A DNA stretch of 64,000 nucleotides, from contig JAKACT010000004.1 in assembly GCA_021821195.1 (NCBI GenBank), positions 248,001 through 312,000 of the forward strand. Reading direction: 5' to 3'. Below the pieces are notes generated by a model. It was not told where the DNA came from, searched no databases, and saw only the letters and a list, made by a program, of their open reading frames with translations. Both the position numbers and the translations under genes were made by a program. Of this stretch, positions 5,687-50,835 are shown in pieces. Source of the stretch: Pseudomonadota bacterium. Lineage in GTDB: Bacteria; Pseudomonadota; Gammaproteobacteria; Xanthomonadales; Xanthomonadaceae. Positions within the stretch are counted from its first letter, which is position 1; each line of letters begins with the position of its first letter.

Positions 5687-5771
<85 letters not shown>

Positions 5772-10334: not shown

Positions 10335-11084
10335 TCAGCGCGCGGGCGGCGCGGTACCCGGCAGCACGCCCTCGGCGCGCAGCCGTTCCAGCATCGGCAG
10401 CGCTTCGCCGAGGAACGCGTCGAAATCGGGGTGGCCCGCTTCCTCCGCCAGCTGGCGCAACAGCGCCCTGCCGCTGCGCCCTTCGTTGGCGGCAACCAGC
10501 GCCAGCAAGCGATACAGCAGCGGGGACAGCATCGAGAAGTGGACGCGGCCGCCGGGATCGCGGCGCAGCAGCACCAGCGTGGGTGCGGGCGGTGGTTCGG
10601 CGGGCTGGCAGTCCGGGCCAAGCCGGTGCACCGGCCAACGGTAGGCCAGCGGCCACGCCAATGGCGACAGCAGCGGCACGCCGTCCAGCAGATCGCCATC
10701 GGGATCGTGCGCAGACAGCGCGGCGTCGCTGAGCTGCAGGCCCAGCTCGGCCCATTCGTAGTGCGCCAGCTCGGCCAGCCATGGCCGCACCGGATCTTCC
10801 GCAGCCTCGAGGAAGGCGATGAACTCCAGTCCCAGCCGGGTGAACAGCGGGGTTTCGCTGTGATGGATGATGAGGAAGCGGCGCAGCAGCGCCTGCCAGT
10901 CGGCATCGCCCAGGGTCCTGCGGATCACCGGGAAGGTGCCGGCCAGCAGGCCGTCGAGGTTGTTGGCCACCAGCTCGCGATAGACCGCCAGTCGCCGGTC
11001 CTCGATGCCGGGCGGGCCGGGGTGGGTGGCCGGATCGCGCACGTGCGCGGCCAGTGCGTGCAGCTGGTCGTGCAGCGCGCTCAT
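10335..11084 (-). CDS. DUF2063-family MNIO partner protein (HvfC/BufC-like)
   Basis: A 249-residue protein of the DUF2063 (formerly 'putative DNA-binding') family. The N-terminal domain has the typical [20 protein letters not shown] and [20 protein letters not shown] segments, followed by a variable C-terminal half. In known systems (HvfABC, bufferins) this protein is the obligate partner of the DUF692 iron oxidase. It helps recruit the peptide whose cysteines are modified. Its ATG overlaps the stop of the DUF692 gene (ATGA at 11081-11084), so the two are translationally coupled, and it is the last gene of a three-gene minus-strand operon. The DNA-binding label in databases is probably wrong. 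Confidence 0.88.
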
Positions 11085-11905
11085 GGCGCTGACGCCTGCA
11101 GCGCGCGGATGCGTGCCACCTCGTCCACCAGCACGGGCAGCGGCGGGAAGTTGAAGTCGCGCTCCAGCAGGGTCGGGCGCACGCCGTGGGTGGCGTAGGC
11201 GAAGCCGAGCAGTGCCCACACGTCGTCCTTCACCGCCGTGCCGTGGGTGTCGATCTTGAGGTCGTCGGCCTCGTCGAAGTGGCCGGCAACGTGGTAGCTG
11301 GCGATGCGCTGCGTCGGCATCGCCGCGATGAAAGCGCGCGCGTCGTAGCCGTGGTTGATCGCGTTGACGTAGACGTTGTTGACGTCCAGCAGCAGGTCGC
11401 AGCCGGCTTCGGCCAGCACCGCTTGGATGAAGTCGGTTTCGGCAAGCTGCTGGAACGGCGCGGCGTAGTAGCTCACGTTCTCCACCGCGATGCGCCGGCC
11501 CAGCGCGTCCTGCACCTCGCGGATGCGCGCGGCGACGTGCAGTACCGCTTCGTCGGTGAACGGCAGCGGCAGCAGGTCGTAGAGGTGGCCGCCAGCGGCG
11601 CAATAGCTCAGGTGCTCGCTGTAGAGCGCGACGCGGTGGCGATCAAGGAAGTCGCGGGTCTGGCGCAGGAACGCGTGGTCCAGCGGATCCGGGCCGCCCA
11701 GCGACAACGACAGGCCGTGGCAGCTCAGCGGATGCCGCGCCGTGAGCGTTTCCAGCTGCCCGCCGAGCGCGCCACCGACGCCGATCCAGTTGTCCGGCGC
11801 GCATTCCAGAAAATCGAAGGCGCCCGCAGGCGCCCCGATCAATTCGTCCAGCAGCGCGCGGCGCAGGCCAAGCCCGGCGCCGTGCTGGGGCAGGGCCTCA
11901 GCCAC
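11081..11905 (-). CDS. DUF692 (UPF0276) multinuclear non-heme iron oxidase, HvfB/BufB-like
   Basis: A 274-residue TIM-barrel enzyme of the MNIO family, related to MbnB. Family members use two or three iron ions and oxygen to convert cysteines of a ribosomal peptide into heterocycles such as thiooxazole or oxazolone-thioamide, which bind copper. Typical segments are [54 protein letters not shown] and [12 protein letters not shown], carrying the His, Glu and Asp ligands. The start is GTG at 11905, three bases after the stop of the EF-hand/EGKCG protein gene, and no ATG exists nearby. The target is very probably that neighbouring protein. Confidence 0.92.
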
Positions 11906-11908
11906 GGC

Positions 11909-12373
11909 TCACATGCTGCCGCCGCACTTGCCCTCGCCGCATTTGCCTTCCCCGCACTTGCCTTCGCCGGCGGCCTTGCCGTCCTTCTTCATGGCAGCGT
12001 GGTGCGCGTCCATTTCGGCCTGGCTGATGAAGCCGTCGCCGTCGGTGTCGATCTTCGGGAACATCGTGTCCTTGCCGCCGTGGGCAGCGGCGAACTCGGC
12101 GCGGGAGATGCGGCCGTCCTTGTCGGTGTCCTTCTGCGCCATGCCGCAGCTGCCTTCCTGCTTGGCCTTGTCGGCCTTGGCGGGCTTGGCGGCGCCCATC
12201 ATCCCGGCGCCGCACTTGCCTTCCCCGCACTTGCCCTCGCTGGCGGCGGCCTTGGGCGGTTCCTGCAGGTAGCCGTGGGCCATCGCGTCCATCGAGAACA
12301 GCGGGCCGGCGAGCGCGCCGGTGGCAACGGCGGCGCCGATCACCAGCGCCAGGGGATTGCGGGATTGCGACAT
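11909..12373 (-). CDS. Secreted EF-hand protein with EGKCG repeats, probable MNIO-modified precursor
   Basis: A 154-residue protein. It has a signal-peptide-like N terminus (residues 1-32, ending MDAMAHG) and two EGKCG units (Cys49, Cys54). A lone EGSCG follows (Cys76), then two EF-hand loops, DTDKDGRISRAE (82-93) and DTDGDGFISQAE (109-120). Three EGKCG units end the protein (Cys140, Cys145, Cys150). All six cysteines lie in the E-G-K/S-C-G motif, the motif modified in HvfA-type peptides. The following genes encode DUF692 and DUF2063 proteins, so this is the likely substrate and would be an exported copper-binding product. ATG 12373 has AAGGAG upstream. The EF-hands could bind calcium or help partner docking; this part is inference. 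Confidence 0.85.
   Translation of the reverse strand: MSQSRNPLALVIGAAVATGALAGPLFSMDAMAHGYLQEPPKAAASEGKCGEGKCGAGMMGAAKPAKADKAKQEGSCGMAQKDTDKDGRISRAEFAAAHGGKDTMFPKIDTDGDGFISQAEMDAHHAAMKKDGKAAGEGKCGEGKCGEGKCGGSM
11924..11968. repeat. Three tandem 15-base repeats encoding EGKCG
   Basis: On the plus strand the units begin at 11924, 11939 and 11954 and differ by one to three bases, mostly silent. Each encodes one E-G-K-C-G unit on the minus strand. Two more copies lie at 12213-12242 within the same gene. The pattern suggests growth by unit duplication. Confidence 0.85.
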
Positions 12374-12470
12374 GGTCGACTCCTTGCGCGAATGCGCCTG
12401 ATGGTGGGGCGATCCTACCGCTTGCGGCACGGGGCGGCCAGTCGCCGGCAGGCGCGCTGTCCCGGGTGGT

Positions 12471-15980: not shown

Positions 15981-17048
15981 TCAGGCGGGCTGCCCGGCCC
16001 AGTACGCCTCGATCTGGCGCACCAGTTCGGGCGGCAGGGGGACGTAGTCCAGCGCCGCTGCCTGCGCGCCGCCGTTGGCCCAGGCCCAGCGGAAGAACTC
16101 GCGCGCCGCCTCGGCCGAGGCGGGATCGCGCGGCTGCCGGCGCATCAGGATGAAATTGGTGGCGGCGATCGGCCAGGCGTCGGCGCCCGGCGCGTCGGTG
16201 ATGACCAGCGCGAAGTCGCGCGCGTTCTTCCAGTCGGCGCTGGCAGCGGCTGCGGCGAAGCTCGCCGCGCCGGGCTGCACCCAGTTGCCGGCGGCATTAC
16301 GCATCGCGGTATAGGCCATCCTGTTCTGCAGCGCGTAGGACAGCTCGACATAGCCGATCGCGCCCTTGAGCTGCTTGACGTAGGAGGCCACGCCCTCGTT
16401 GCCCTTGCCGCCCACGCTGGTGGCGATCCAGTTGACGGTGGTGCCTTCGCCGACCTGCGCCTTCCAGTCGGCGCTCGCCTTGGAGAGGTAGTTGGTGAAG
16501 TTGAAGGTGGTGCCCGAACCATCGGAGCGGCGCACAACGTTGATCTTTTCGGCCGGCAGCACCAGGCCCGGGTTGGCCGCGGCGATGGCCGGGTCGTTCC
16601 AGCGGGTCACCTTGCCGAGGTAGATATCCGCCAGCAGCGGGCCGGTCAGGCGCAGCTTGCCCGCCTCGATGCCGGGCAGGTTGACCACCGGCACCACCCC
16701 GCCGATCACCGAGGGGAACTGCATCAGCCCGTCCTTCACCAGCTCGTCGGTGGGCAGGGGCTTGTCGGAGGAGCCGAAGTCCACCGTGCCAGCCTTGATC
16801 TGGGCGATGCCGCCGCCGGAGCCGATCGACTGGTAGTTGATGCGCTTTCCGTTCAGCCTGGCGTAGTCGGACGACCACTTCGAGAACAGCGGATACACGA
16901 AGCTGGCACCGGCGCCGGTGACGACGTCGGCAACCCGGTCGGCCTGCGTGGCATCGGCGCCGGTGCGGTCACTGTCCCCGGAGCACGCGGCCAGGCCGGT
17001 GGCCAGGGTCAGGCAGAGGGCGGTGAGGCGGAAGGCGGAGCGGAACAT
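15981..17048 (-). CDS. pstS: Phosphate-binding protein PstS, lipoprotein form
   Basis: A 355-residue substrate-binding protein that delivers phosphate to PstCAB. The signal ends in a lipobox (GLAAC, Cys22), so it is predicted to be lipid-anchored. Phosphate-binding segments are TGAGASFVYPLFSKW, SIGSGGGIAQI, DFGSSDKPL and RRSDGSGTTFNFTNYLS. It is paralogous to the downstream-transcribed neighbour at 17208-18230, which has an ordinary signal peptide. It has its own Pho box at 17098-17115 and leads the pstCAB-phoU run. Confidence 0.93.
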   Translation of the reverse strand: MFRSAFRLTALCLTLATGLAACSGDSDRTGADATQADRVADVVTGAGASFVYPLFSKWSSDYARLNGKRINYQSIGSGGGIAQIKAGTVDFGSSDKPLPTDELVKDGLMQFPSVIGGVVPVVNLPGIEAGKLRLTGPLLADIYLGKVTRWNDPAIAAANPGLVLPAEKINVVRRSDGSGTTFNFTNYLSKASADWKAQVGEGTTVNWIATSVGGKGNEGVASYVKQLKGAIGYVELSYALQNRMAYTAMRNAAGNWVQPGAASFAAAAASADWKNARDFALVITDAPGADAWPIAATNFILMRRQPRDPASAEAAREFFRWAWANGGAQAAALDYVPLPPELVRQIEAYWAGQPA

Positions 17049-17207: not shown

Positions 17208-18230
17208 TTACTTGACGTTCTGCGTCCAGTAGGTATCGATCTGCTGGACCAGCGAGTCGGGGAGCGGGACGTAGCCGAGCGAAGCGGCGGACGCATCGCC
17301 GTTGGCATAGACCCAGCGGAAGAAGTCCAGCGCGGCCTTGGTGCCCGGCTTGCTGTTCTTGTGCACCAGCATGAAGTTGGTGGCGGTGATCGGCCAGGCG
17401 TTCTCGCCCGGCGCGTTGGTGACGATCAGGAAGAAGTCCTTGGTCGACTTCCAGTCGGCGCTGGCGGCGGCCTCGGCGAAGCTGTCGTCGCTCGGGTTGA
17501 CGTAGTTGCCGGCGGCGTTCTTCAGGCGCGAATAGGCGACCTTGTTCTGGATCGCGTAGGCCAGCTCGACGTAGCCGATGCTGCCGCGGATCTGCTTGAC
17601 GTAGGCGGACACGCCTTCGTTACCCTTGCCGCCGATGCCGACCGGCCACTTCACCGCGGTGCCTTCGCCGACCTCGGTCTTCCACGACGGGCTGACCTTG
17701 GACAGGTAGTTGGTGAAGTTGAAGGTGGTGCCGGAGCCGTCGGAGCGGTGCACCACGGTGATCTTCTGCGCCGGCAGGGTCAGGCCGCGGTTGCTGGCGA
17801 CGATGCGCGGATCGTTCCACATCTTGATCTTGCCGAGGAAGATGTCGGCCAGCACGTCCGGGTCCAGCTTCATGGCGCCGGCGGCGATGCCGGGCAGGTT
17901 GAACGCCGGCACGATGCCGCCGATCACCGACGGGAACTGCGCCAGGCCCGAGCGTGCCAGCTCGGCCGGCGGCAGCGGCTTGTCGGAGGAGCCGAAATCA
18001 ACGGTGCCGGCCTTGATCTGGGCGATGCCGCCGCCGGAGCCGATCGACTGGTAGTTCACTTCCTTGCCGGTGGCGGCCTTGTAGTCGGACGACCACTTGG
18101 ACATCGCCGGGTAGACGAAGGAGGCGCCGGCGCCGGTGACGTCGGAAGCGAAGGCGCTGGCGGACATGACGGCGGTGAGACTGGTCGCCAGCGCGAGCGC
18201 GGCGATGCGGATCTTGAAGGACTTGGACAC
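17208..18230 (-). CDS. pstS: Phosphate-binding protein PstS, soluble periplasmic form
   Basis: A 340-residue periplasmic phosphate-binding protein with a Sec signal peptide (residues 1-28, ending ASAFA) and no lipobox cysteine. The binding-site segments TGAGASFVYPAMSKW, SIGSGGGIAQI and HRSDGSGTTFNFTNYLS match its lipoprotein paralogue. The start is GTG at 18230 with AGGAG seven bases upstream; no ATG is available in the right place. A Pho box lies 90 bases upstream and a strong terminator follows, so this is a high-output monocistronic gene of the Pho regulon. Confidence 0.93.
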   Translation of the reverse strand: MSKSFKIRIAALALATSLTAVMSASAFASDVTGAGASFVYPAMSKWSSDYKAATGKEVNYQSIGSGGGIAQIKAGTVDFGSSDKPLPPAELARSGLAQFPSVIGGIVPAFNLPGIAAGAMKLDPDVLADIFLGKIKMWNDPRIVASNRGLTLPAQKITVVHRSDGSGTTFNFTNYLSKVSPSWKTEVGEGTAVKWPVGIGGKGNEGVSAYVKQIRGSIGYVELAYAIQNKVAYSRLKNAAGNYVNPSDDSFAEAAASADWKSTKDFFLIVTNAPGENAWPITATNFMLVHKNSKPGTKAALDFFRWVYANGDASAASLGYVPLPDSLVQQIDTYWTQNVK

Positions 18231-38619: not shown

Positions 38620-38695
38620 GCCGGAGTAGCTCAGTTGGTAGAGCACGTCATTCGTAATGATGGGGTCGTAGGTTCGATTCCTATCTCCGGCACCA
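38620..38695 (+). tRNA. tRNA-Thr (anticodon CGT)
   Basis: A 76-base cloverleaf with acceptor stem GCCGGAG / CTCCGGC and encoded CCA. The anticodon arm has loop TTCGTAA and anticodon CGT, reading ACG. The T arm is GTAGG-TTCGATT-CCTAT. It closely resembles E. coli thrW. A TACAAT hexamer lies about 10 bases upstream, and a terminator follows at 38710. Confidence 0.96.
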
Positions 38696-49683: not shown

Positions 49684-49854
49684 GCGCACAGTCTGCGGCT
49701 GGGGATAAGCTGTCGTCGTACCACCCTCCAAGCCCCCTTGCCTGGGTTCGTCCGCGAATATGGCAACGGGGCCGTGGCAGTGACCGGAAGGTTGCCGCCA
49801 CCGGGTCGGATCCGGAAACGGGCCGGCCTCCCGCGTTCGGACTGGAGCGACAAC
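49684..49854 (+). promoter_or_regulatory. Long structured leader of moaA (candidate riboswitch region)
   Basis: The 171 bases between the FNR box and moaA carry no gene. GGCAAC (49762-49767) can pair with GTTGCC (49791-49796), with further GC-rich complementary stretches around. moaA leaders in other gammaproteobacteria carry a molybdenum-cofactor riboswitch; I cannot confirm the motif here by eye. Confidence 0.35.
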
Positions 49855-50835
49855 ATGGCAACCCTCGTGGACGGCTTCGGCCGCACGTTCCCCTATCTGC
49901 GGCTCTCGCTCACCGAGGCCTGCAACTACCGTTGCAGCTACTGCCTGCCGGATGGCTACCAGGCCGATGGACGCCCCACCTTCCTGTCGCTGGAGGAAAT
50001 CAAGCGGCTGGTGCGCGGCTTCGCCGCGGTGGGGATGCGCAAGATCCGCCTGACCGGCGGCGAGCCCAGCCTGCGCAAGGACCTGCCGTCGATCATCGCC
50101 GCCGTCTCGGCGACGCCGGGCGTGCAGAAGATCGCCCTGACCACCAATGGCTGCCTGCTGCCCCGGCATGTGCGGCTGTGGCGCGAAGCCGGGCTGACCG
50201 CGCTCAACGTCAGCCTGGACAGCCTGCAATCGGCGCGTTTCGCCGCCATCACCGGGCACGACCGCTTCGCTGAGGTGATGGAGGGCGTCGAGATCGCACA
50301 GGGGCTCGGCTTCGACGCGGTCAAGCTCAACGCGGTGCTGCTGCGCGGGCTGAACGACGACGAGCTGCCGGCGTGGATGGACTTCCTGCGCGACCGCGAC
50401 GTGTCGATCCGCTTCATCGAGCTGATGCGCACCGGCGACAACGCGGCCTATTTCGAACGCCACCACTACCGCGCCGAGGCGCTGGAACAACAGTTGGTGG
50501 ATGCCGGCTGGACGCTCCGGCCGCGCGCCGCCGATGCCGGCCCGGCGCGCGAGTACGCGCACCCTGGCTATCGCGGGCGGATCGGCATCATCGCCCCGTA
50601 TTCGAAGGATTTCTGCGCTGGCTGCAACCGCCTGCGGGTGACCGCCCGCGGCGACCTGCGGCTGTGCCTGTTCGGCGACTTCGGCATCCCGCTGCGGCCG
50701 CTGCTGCAGTCGGATGAAGACCACGACGCGCTGGCGGCACGCATCGCCACCCAGCTGGGCCTGAAGGCCGCGGGCCACGGCCTGCACGAGGGCAACACCG
50801 GCATCACCCCGCACCTGGCCTCAATCGGCGGATAA
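49855..50835 (+). CDS. moaA: GTP 3',8-cyclase MoaA
   Basis: A radical SAM enzyme for the first step of molybdenum cofactor synthesis, acting with MoaC on GTP. The 326-residue protein has the SAM cluster motif CNYRCSYC (Cys23, 27, 30), LTGGEPSLRKDL and LNVSLDSL. The second cluster motif CAGCNRLRVTARGDLRLC is near the C terminus, and the ending GG is typical of MoaA. ATG 49855 has GGAG upstream. It starts a run of coupled moa genes. Confidence 0.96.
   Translation: MATLVDGFGRTFPYLRLSLTEACNYRCSYCLPDGYQADGRPTFLSLEEIKRLVRGFAAVGMRKIRLTGGEPSLRKDLPSIIAAVSATPGVQKIALTTNGCLLPRHVRLWREAGLTALNVSLDSLQSARFAAITGHDRFAEVMEGVEIAQGLGFDAVKLNAVLLRGLNDDELPAWMDFLRDRDVSIRFIELMRTGDNAAYFERHHYRAEALEQQLVDAGWTLRPRAADAGPAREYAHPGYRGRIGIIAPYSKDFCAGCNRLRVTARGDLRLCLFGDFGIPLRPLLQSDEDHDALAARIATQLGLKAAGHGLHEGNTGITPHLASIGG

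What the first reader, a model, noticed from the sequence alone, without database searches (positions are those of the whole stretch)
10335..12373. MNIO peptide operon whose precursor combines EGKCG repeats with two EF-hands
Three coupled minus-strand genes encode a secreted 154-residue protein, a DUF692 iron oxidase and a DUF2063 partner. All six cysteines of the precursor sit in E-G-K/S-C-G units: two before and three after a pair of canonical EF-hand loops, plus a lone EGSCG. Known HvfABC and bufferin systems modify cysteines in short Cys-rich peptides to make copper ligands. Here the modifiable units flank a calcium-binding-type domain. This hints at a calcium-gated or folded-scaffold metallophore, or an EF-hand docking site for the enzyme.
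Basis: partly seen in the sequence, partly recalled or inferred. Interest (0 to 1): 0.78.

Follow-up and report, generated by a model that had tools for sequence, protein, structure and literature searches.

The report
Calcium-binding protein with copper-peptide arms
A bacterial operon makes a probably secreted protein with a calcium-binding core and cysteine-repeat arms on both sides, which its neighbour enzyme probably turns into copper ligands; this kind was already described, but related species without the enzyme keep the calcium core and lack the cysteine repeats, which suggests that the two halves are separable.

Summary
Three minus-strand genes in a Thermomonas-type genome encode a 154-aa protein with a signal-like start, an HvfB-family MNIO enzyme and an HvfC-family partner. 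All six cysteines lie in EG(K/S)CG units: two plus a lone EGSCG before a canonical EF-hand pair, three after it. It is not a new kind: Antoine et al. [quoted passage not shown] aeruginosa EfhP has four EGKCG repeats beside DUF692 and DUF2063 genes. What I add: (1) cysteine units on both sides of the EF pair are usual (36 of 39 and 8 of 9 precursors), not N-terminal only as described. (2) Enzymes serving EF and EF-less precursors differ no more than random sets, so enzyme docking is disfavoured. (3) A natural experiment: 18 of 25 genomes of the genus have the enzyme and EGKCG repeats; 7 have neither, yet keep at the same locus an EF-hand protein with canonical loops and a His-ended tail. One clade for those 7 is rejected (p-AU 0.004). 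The leader motif F-x7-G(Y/F) is missing from them too. Best reading: a calcium-folded core with two disordered, enzyme-modified, copper-binding arms. Modification, metal binding and calcium gating are not shown.

The parts
11909..12373 (-). precursor: signal-like start, EGKCG arm, EF-hand pair, EGKCG arm (154 aa)
12412..12417 (-). -10-like TAGGAT, 44 bases before the ATG; TA[GA][GC]AT lies 25-55 bases before the start in 24 of 25 upstreams of the genus (base-shuffled mean 0.17 of 25, max 2)
12269..12298 (-). leader motif F-x7-G-Y (residues 26-35); possible recognition element, shared with EF-less precursors, absent from the 7 enzyme-less relatives
12209..12238 (-). EGKCGEGKCG, N-terminal arm (residues 46-55)
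12143..12157 (-). lone EGSCG (residues 73-77); an EGxCG unit just before loop 1 is present in 9 of 18 genus members that have the operon (window genome included)
12095..12130 (-). EF-hand loop 1, DTDKDGRISRAE (residues 82-93)
12014..12049 (-). EF-hand loop 2, DTDGDGFISQAE (residues 109-120)
11921..11965 (-). EGKCGEGKCGEGKCG, C-terminal arm (residues 137-151)
11081..11905 (-). MNIO (DUF692) enzyme, HvfB family, 274 aa, GTG start
10335..11084 (-). partner protein, HvfC family (DUF2063 + NGO1945_C); overlaps the MNIO gene by ATGA

Best explanation
An HvfABC/captophorin-type operon whose precursor is a two-part secreted protein. In the cytoplasm the MNIO and its partner read the conserved leader (F-x7-GY) and tandem EGKCG units and oxidise the cysteines, expected as 5-thiooxazole at -4 Da each; they do not need the EF-hands. 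The unfolded protein is exported; in the calcium-rich periplasm the EF pair folds into a small lobe with one disordered, metal-binding arm on each side. The arms bind copper and the EF core has a calcium role of its own. Shown by sequence: gene set, layout, recurrence, confident predicted EF fold with disordered arms, joint absence of enzyme, EGKCG units and leader motif with retention of the EF core. Inferred from relatives: modification chemistry, copper binding. Inferred only: secretion, order of events, what the leader motif is for, and why arms are joined to a calcium core (anchoring, stability, or coupling copper to calcium).
For: HvfB and HvfC models over cut-off. EGKCG units are modified by relatives: FonBC took a two-repeat peptide (-8 Da) but not a one-repeat one; NedA lost 12 Da with three motifs. 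AlphaFold2: block means 83-93 over residues 81-130, arms 32-74 and 133-154 below 50; best Foldseek matches are calmodulin-like EF lobes, probability near 1 but none at E <= 0.001. In the genus sample the HvfB-type enzyme and EGKCGEGKCG DNA occur together in 18 of 25 genomes and are absent together in 7. The 7 keep an EF-pair protein at the same locus with 0 EGxCG and canonical loops, EF-segment pN/pS 0.25; one clade for them is rejected, p-AU 0.0044. F-x7-G[YF] before the first CG: 37 of 39 EF, 33 of 40 EF-less as counted (L079 was mis-cut and has it, so 34), 0 of 7 enzyme-less. EfhP binds calcium, 13.7 uM, and is predicted periplasmic.
Against: No biochemical data on this protein. HvfA equivalog model not reached (21.6 against 95 bits). 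EfhP is presented as a calcium sensor controlling iron-uptake genes, not as a copper protein. A FonA alanine scan found no single required position before the core, against a decisive leader motif. In the class sample 4 of 12 EF-type precursors have no MNIO in the fetched flanks of about 1.5 kb, though all 4 genomes hold an HvfB-like MNIO with HvfC elsewhere. L028 has the enzyme yet only one Cys unit. Transfer of the EF gene between species instead of repeated loss is not excluded.
Confidence: 0.62

Rival explanations
1. The EF-hand pair is a docking site or folded handle by which the enzyme or partner holds the precursor.
For: EF pair and enzyme are neighbours in 35 of the 40 enzymes of the main family clade.
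Against: Five EF-less precursors in that clade; 8 label changes on the enzyme tree, 4 forced by starred branches; 1 discriminating enzyme column against a mean of 0.65 for random sets, 137 of 300 sets as high; EF pair kept under constraint in enzyme-less genomes.
Confidence: 0.08
2. Primarily a calcium sensor like EfhP; the EGKCG arms are a redox or metal-responsive add-on and the product is a signalling protein, not a metal buffer.
For: EfhP has four EGKCG repeats, sits beside DUF692 and DUF2063 genes, binds calcium and is reported to control iron-uptake genes. The EF core is the part kept in enzyme-less genomes.
Against: Up to 9 Cys units follow the EF pair in one relative (L052), which suggests binding capacity; the EGKCG product gonophorin bound 1 or 2 Cu.
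Confidence: 0.22
3. Calcium-gated metallophore: calcium binding folds the core and changes copper affinity or release by the arms.
For: Cys units bracket the EF pair in 44 of 48 precursors (36 of 39 plus 8 of 9); loop ligands canonical in 95 of 95 loops, though the search pattern already asked for most of them.
Against: Arms predicted disordered, with variable linkers and unit numbers; no coupling contact seen.
Confidence: 0.15
4. Lanmodulin-like rare-earth binder with extra arms.
For: Weak NCBIfam LanM hit, 20.7 bits; 40.3 bits in one relative, L173.
Against: Cut-off 135; the Pro at loop position 2 of lanmodulin (recalled) occurs in 1 of 95 loops.
Confidence: 0.03

Closest known systems
[quoted passage not shown] 2025, PMC12452194)
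   Same: EGKCG units and two EF-hand_5 domains after a predicted membrane helix or signal region, associated with MNIO genes (sections 14 and 15 and passages seen).
   Different: Described there as EF-hands fused to the C-terminus of a short EGKCG domain; here, and in 44 of 48 precursors examined, units also follow the EF pair.
EfhP (PA4107) of Pseudomonas aeruginosa
   Same: Two EF-hands, four EGKCG repeats, adjacent DUF692 and DUF2063 genes (passages).
   Different: Studied as a calcium sensor; the position of its repeats relative to the EF pair was not checked here.
HvfABC oxazolin / fontiphorin / gonophorin (captophorins)
   Same: HvfB and HvfC models met; EGKCG repeats; 5-thiooxazole reported for those products.
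   Different: No EF-hand is mentioned in the captophorin paper (term not found); HvfA equivalog model not reached here.
Enzyme-less EF-hand proteins of the same genus (L130-L136)
   Same: Same locus, hydrophobic start, EF pair with 27-residue loop spacing, -10-like element in 6 of 7.
   Different: No EGxCG, no F-x7-GY leader, His-ended tail, no enzyme genes at the locus.

Membership tests
HvfABC / captophorin operon | MNIO enzyme of the HvfB family | tested here: met
   419.5 bits against 360
HvfABC / captophorin operon | DUF2063-type partner (PME1/HvfC) | tested here: met
   279.2 bits against 142
HvfABC / captophorin operon | Precursor with repeated EGKCG units | tested here: met
   NF050137 29.0 against 19.5; 6 of 6 Cys in EGxCG
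HvfABC / captophorin operon | HvfA equivalog | tested here: not met
   NF050188 21.6 against 95
HvfABC / captophorin operon | 5-thiooxazole (-4 Da) on Cys and copper binding | not testable with these tools
   needs mass spectrometry and binding assays
Buf_EGKCG|EF-hand_5 chimaera | EGKCG units and two EF-hand_5 domains beside an MNIO gene | tested here: met
Buf_EGKCG|EF-hand_5 chimaera | Signal peptide or membrane helix | not tested
   hydrophobic N-terminus read by eye; no predictor run
Buf_EGKCG|EF-hand_5 chimaera | EF-hands C-terminal to the EGKCG domain, as the paper words it | tested here: inconclusive
   two EGKCG units precede the EF pair, but three more follow it; same in most relatives
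EF-hand calcium-binding protein | Canonical loop ligands at 1, 3, 5, 12 | tested here: met
   both loops; Pfam EF-hand_5 and EF-hand_1 over cut-off
EF-hand calcium-binding protein | Calcium binding | not testable with these tools
   inferred from loops and from EfhP
Lanmodulin | LanM model and Pro at loop position 2 (the latter recalled) | tested here: not met
   20.7 against 135; no Pro2 in either loop here, 1 of 95 loops overall
XopAW | XopAW subfamily model | tested here: not met
   37.1 against 120

The most novel reading that the evidence does not exclude
A periplasmic two-metal protein with exchangeable arms: one calcium-folded EF core carries either enzyme-made thiooxazole arms or, in lineages that lost the enzyme several times, a histidine tail as substitute metal ligand; calcium and transition-metal binding are coupled, and the modification machinery is a gain-or-loss module on a conserved calcium protein.
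Probability: 0.2. Interest if true: 0.68.

Novelty: new member of a known kind. Interest (0 to 1): 0.45.

Why it matters
It links two lines of work that barely meet, calcium sensing by EfhP-like proteins and copper-binding MNIO peptides, and adds to the published picture (EF-hands after an N-terminal EGKCG domain) a second arm that is usual. The genus offers a natural deletion series: same locus and EF core, with and without enzyme and cysteine units. That makes three open questions testable: what the MNIO reads in its substrate, what the calcium core does alone, and whether a histidine tail replaces the enzyme-made ligands.

Tried and rejected
Rejected or led nowhere: docking role of the EF pair; lanmodulin and XopAW membership; a sigma-70 consensus promoter from the pattern scan (0 found; the aligned upstreams show a -10-like element instead); a solved relative of the precursor by sequence (none at E 0.001).

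Rows dropped. In one search, 113 MNIO loci were sorted after leaving out 10 repeats of the same places (L001, L032, L036-L043). 79 had a usable EGKCG precursor (39 EF, 40 EF-less). The other 34 were left out of precursor counts: 31 loci L099-L129 (23-44% identical), L098 (47%), L066 (61%, no sequence before the gene at the contig end) and L049 (57%, the script picked a wrong ORF; its real precursor is EF-less). Starts of L027, L028, L057 and L079 were re-cut; L079 still lost its leader because of a CG inside it. 'EF' and 'EF-less' rest on a loop pattern that already asks for D1, a D/N/S/G at 3 and an acid or Gln at 12, so decayed loops would count as absent. L068 (long branch) was left out; L003, L004 and L012 were left out of the pN/pS count, which has 15 operon-bearing and 7 enzyme-less rows. 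The concatenated flanking-gene tree holds 21 of the 25 genus genomes (14 with operon, 7 without); 11 of its 22 inner branches are open.

Number of losses: 4 changes are the fewest on each of three trees (RNase_T gene; flanking genes; EF DNA), with 3, 2 and 2 forced by starred branches; five of seven share a tail ending EHAGHH, which may mean 3. In the EF DNA tree L133 has a long branch and odd base make-up. One search printed only its best matches. Of 11 same-family genomes of other genera without a close HvfB, only one stretch of G048 was looked at (L138).

Full report
Observation. The three minus-strand genes are present as described. The precursor (11909-12373) has a hydrophobic, signal-like start (read by eye), EGKCGEGKCG at residues 46-55, a lone EGSCG at 73-77, two 12-residue EF loops starting at 82 and 109, and three EGKCG units at 137-151. 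All six cysteines lie in EGxCG units. Pfam gives EF-hand_5 and EF-hand_1 over cut-off; NCBIfam gives the KCGExKCG_twice domain over cut-off. The second gene is an HvfB-family MNIO, the third an HvfC-family partner, both over the curated cut-offs. The closest solved enzyme by sequence is 3bww, a DUF692 protein.

Where it lies. The named records nearest to the precursor include a Thermomonas MAG (97%), T. haemolytica (65%) and T. flagellata (67%); contig lengths of these records equal those of genomes that the tool puts in the window's genus (G024, G008, G004). The operon follows pst/phoU-type genes and precedes a gene with an RNase_T exonuclease domain (Pfam). A TAGGAT hexamer 44 bases before the ATG fits an element found as TA[GA][GC]AT 25-55 bases before the start in 24 of 25 upstreams of the genus, against a base-shuffled mean of 0.17, so the gene probably has its own promoter.

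Recurrence. A search of 99 related genomes, the window's own included, with the MNIO found matches in 82. I examined 113 MNIO loci, 109 from that search and 4 from named contigs; 79 had a usable EGKCG precursor, 39 with EF loops and 40 without. In 36 of the 39, CG-type cysteine units lie both before and after the EF loops; the exceptions are L028, L030 and L068. A class-wide draw of 369 genomes gave 12 with a match at E 1e-15; of the 9 not already counted, 8 have both arms, in five further family groups (f54, f55, f91, f133, f144), and L181 has units before only. The published description places the EF-hands at the C-terminus of a short EGKCG domain. I found no mention of the second arm in what I saw of the papers; the library is open-access only, and for most of these papers I saw passages, not the whole text.

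Is it new. No. Antoine et al. 2025 (PMC12452194; [quoted passage not shown] The 2014 EfhP paper (PMC4053335, one passage) notes the adjacent DUF692 and DUF2063 genes; the 2024 EfhP paper (PMC11559002, passages) notes four EGKCG repeats; the 2022 paper (PMC9132961, passages) reports calcium binding at 13.7 uM. EGKCG cysteines become 5-thiooxazole according to PMC13097082 (sections 12 and 13 and passages); another assignment is oxazolone/thioamide (mentioned in PMC12636315, passages). The original HvfABC and bufferin papers were not read.

Does the enzyme need the EF-hands. On a tree of 84 enzymes the EF label changes 8 times (shuffled mean 26.8; starred branches force 4), so it is clustered but not fixed. 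Five EF-less precursors lie inside the family clade that otherwise has EF types (35 of 40), beside enzymes 67-74% identical to the window's. Comparing 34 EF-serving enzymes with these 5, 1 column discriminates; random sets of 5 give 0.65 on average, and 137 of 300 reach 1 or more. With only five rows the test is weak, but it gives no sign of an EF-docking surface.

Natural experiment. Of 25 genomes of the genus, 18 have an HvfB-type enzyme (75-100% identical) and the same 18 have DNA for EGKCGEGKCG, in each case at this locus; the other 7 have neither. Of these 7, four have no MNIO at all and three only distant copies elsewhere (39-43% identical). Yet all 7 keep at the same locus, beside the exonuclease gene and in three cases phoU within the fetched stretch, an EF-pair protein with a hydrophobic start (L130-L136), and no trace of the enzyme or partner genes there at E 1e-4. 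It has 0 EGxCG units against 4-8 in the others, canonical loops with 27-residue spacing (27 in 17 of the 18 others, 39 in L012), and a tail ending in His (His 15-29% of the tail against 0-3%). The EF segment shows purifying selection in both sets (uncorrected pN/pS 0.25 and 0.40). One clade for the seven is rejected on the EF-segment DNA (p-AU 0.0044), and the RNase_T gene and concatenated flanking genes also need 4 changes. As other genera of the family have enzyme plus EF precursor, repeated loss is the simpler reading; transfer of the EF gene is not excluded.

Leader. F-x7-G[YF] before the first CG occurs in 37 of 39 EF and 33 of 40 EF-less precursors as counted (L079, mis-cut, has it), in 0.46 of 79 on average after shuffling, and in 0 of 7 enzyme-less proteins. 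It overlaps the signal-like region, so part of the conservation may serve export; its absence where the enzyme is absent suggests recognition by enzyme or partner. Conserved leaders in EGKCG precursors were noted for Microbulbifer (PMC12538549, passages). A FonA alanine scan found no single required position before the core, which is a caution.

Structure. AlphaFold2 on 36 aligned precursors gives mean pLDDT 58.9 and pTM 0.40; blocks over residues 81-130 are at 83-93, both arms below 50. The best Foldseek matches are calmodulin-like lobes at probability near 1 but with E 0.07 or worse, none at 0.001, as may be expected for a small domain in a mostly disordered model.

Mechanism. I propose modification before export, directed by leader and tandem units; export; calcium-dependent folding; copper binding by the arms; and a separate role of the EF core. 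In vitro a single repeat was not modified by a relative, so the lone EGSCG, whose counterpart is present in 9 of 18 genus members with the operon, may stay unmodified: expected mass change -20 to -24 Da.

Limits. Nothing here shows secretion, modification, metal binding or calcium gating. The His tail as substitute ligand is a guess from composition. Absence of genes rests on assemblies of 95-100% estimated completeness for the seven.

Noticed in passing
L130-L136 (seven genomes of the same genus): EF-hand-pair proteins at the same locus without the enzyme genes, without any EGxCG unit and with a His-ended tail (HAGHH, PHH or SSH).
   Followed up: yes
L172, L173, L178, L180: EF-type EGKCG precursors with no MNIO in the fetched flanks of about 1.5 kb; each genome has an HvfB-like MNIO with HvfC elsewhere, so modification in trans is possible.
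   Followed up: partly
L028: Precursor beside an HvfB-type enzyme with only one cysteine unit; possibly a step toward loss.
   Followed up: no
window 49714-49864 (+): Molybdenum/tungsten cofactor riboswitch (RF01055, 63.1 bits against 36).
   Followed up: no
window 15981-17048 and 17208-18230 (-): Two adjacent substrate-binding protein genes (PBP_like_2) before the pst-type transporter genes.
   Followed up: no
window 5687-5771 (-) and 38620-38695 (+): tRNA-Leu (CAG) and tRNA-Thr (CGT) genes.
   Followed up: no
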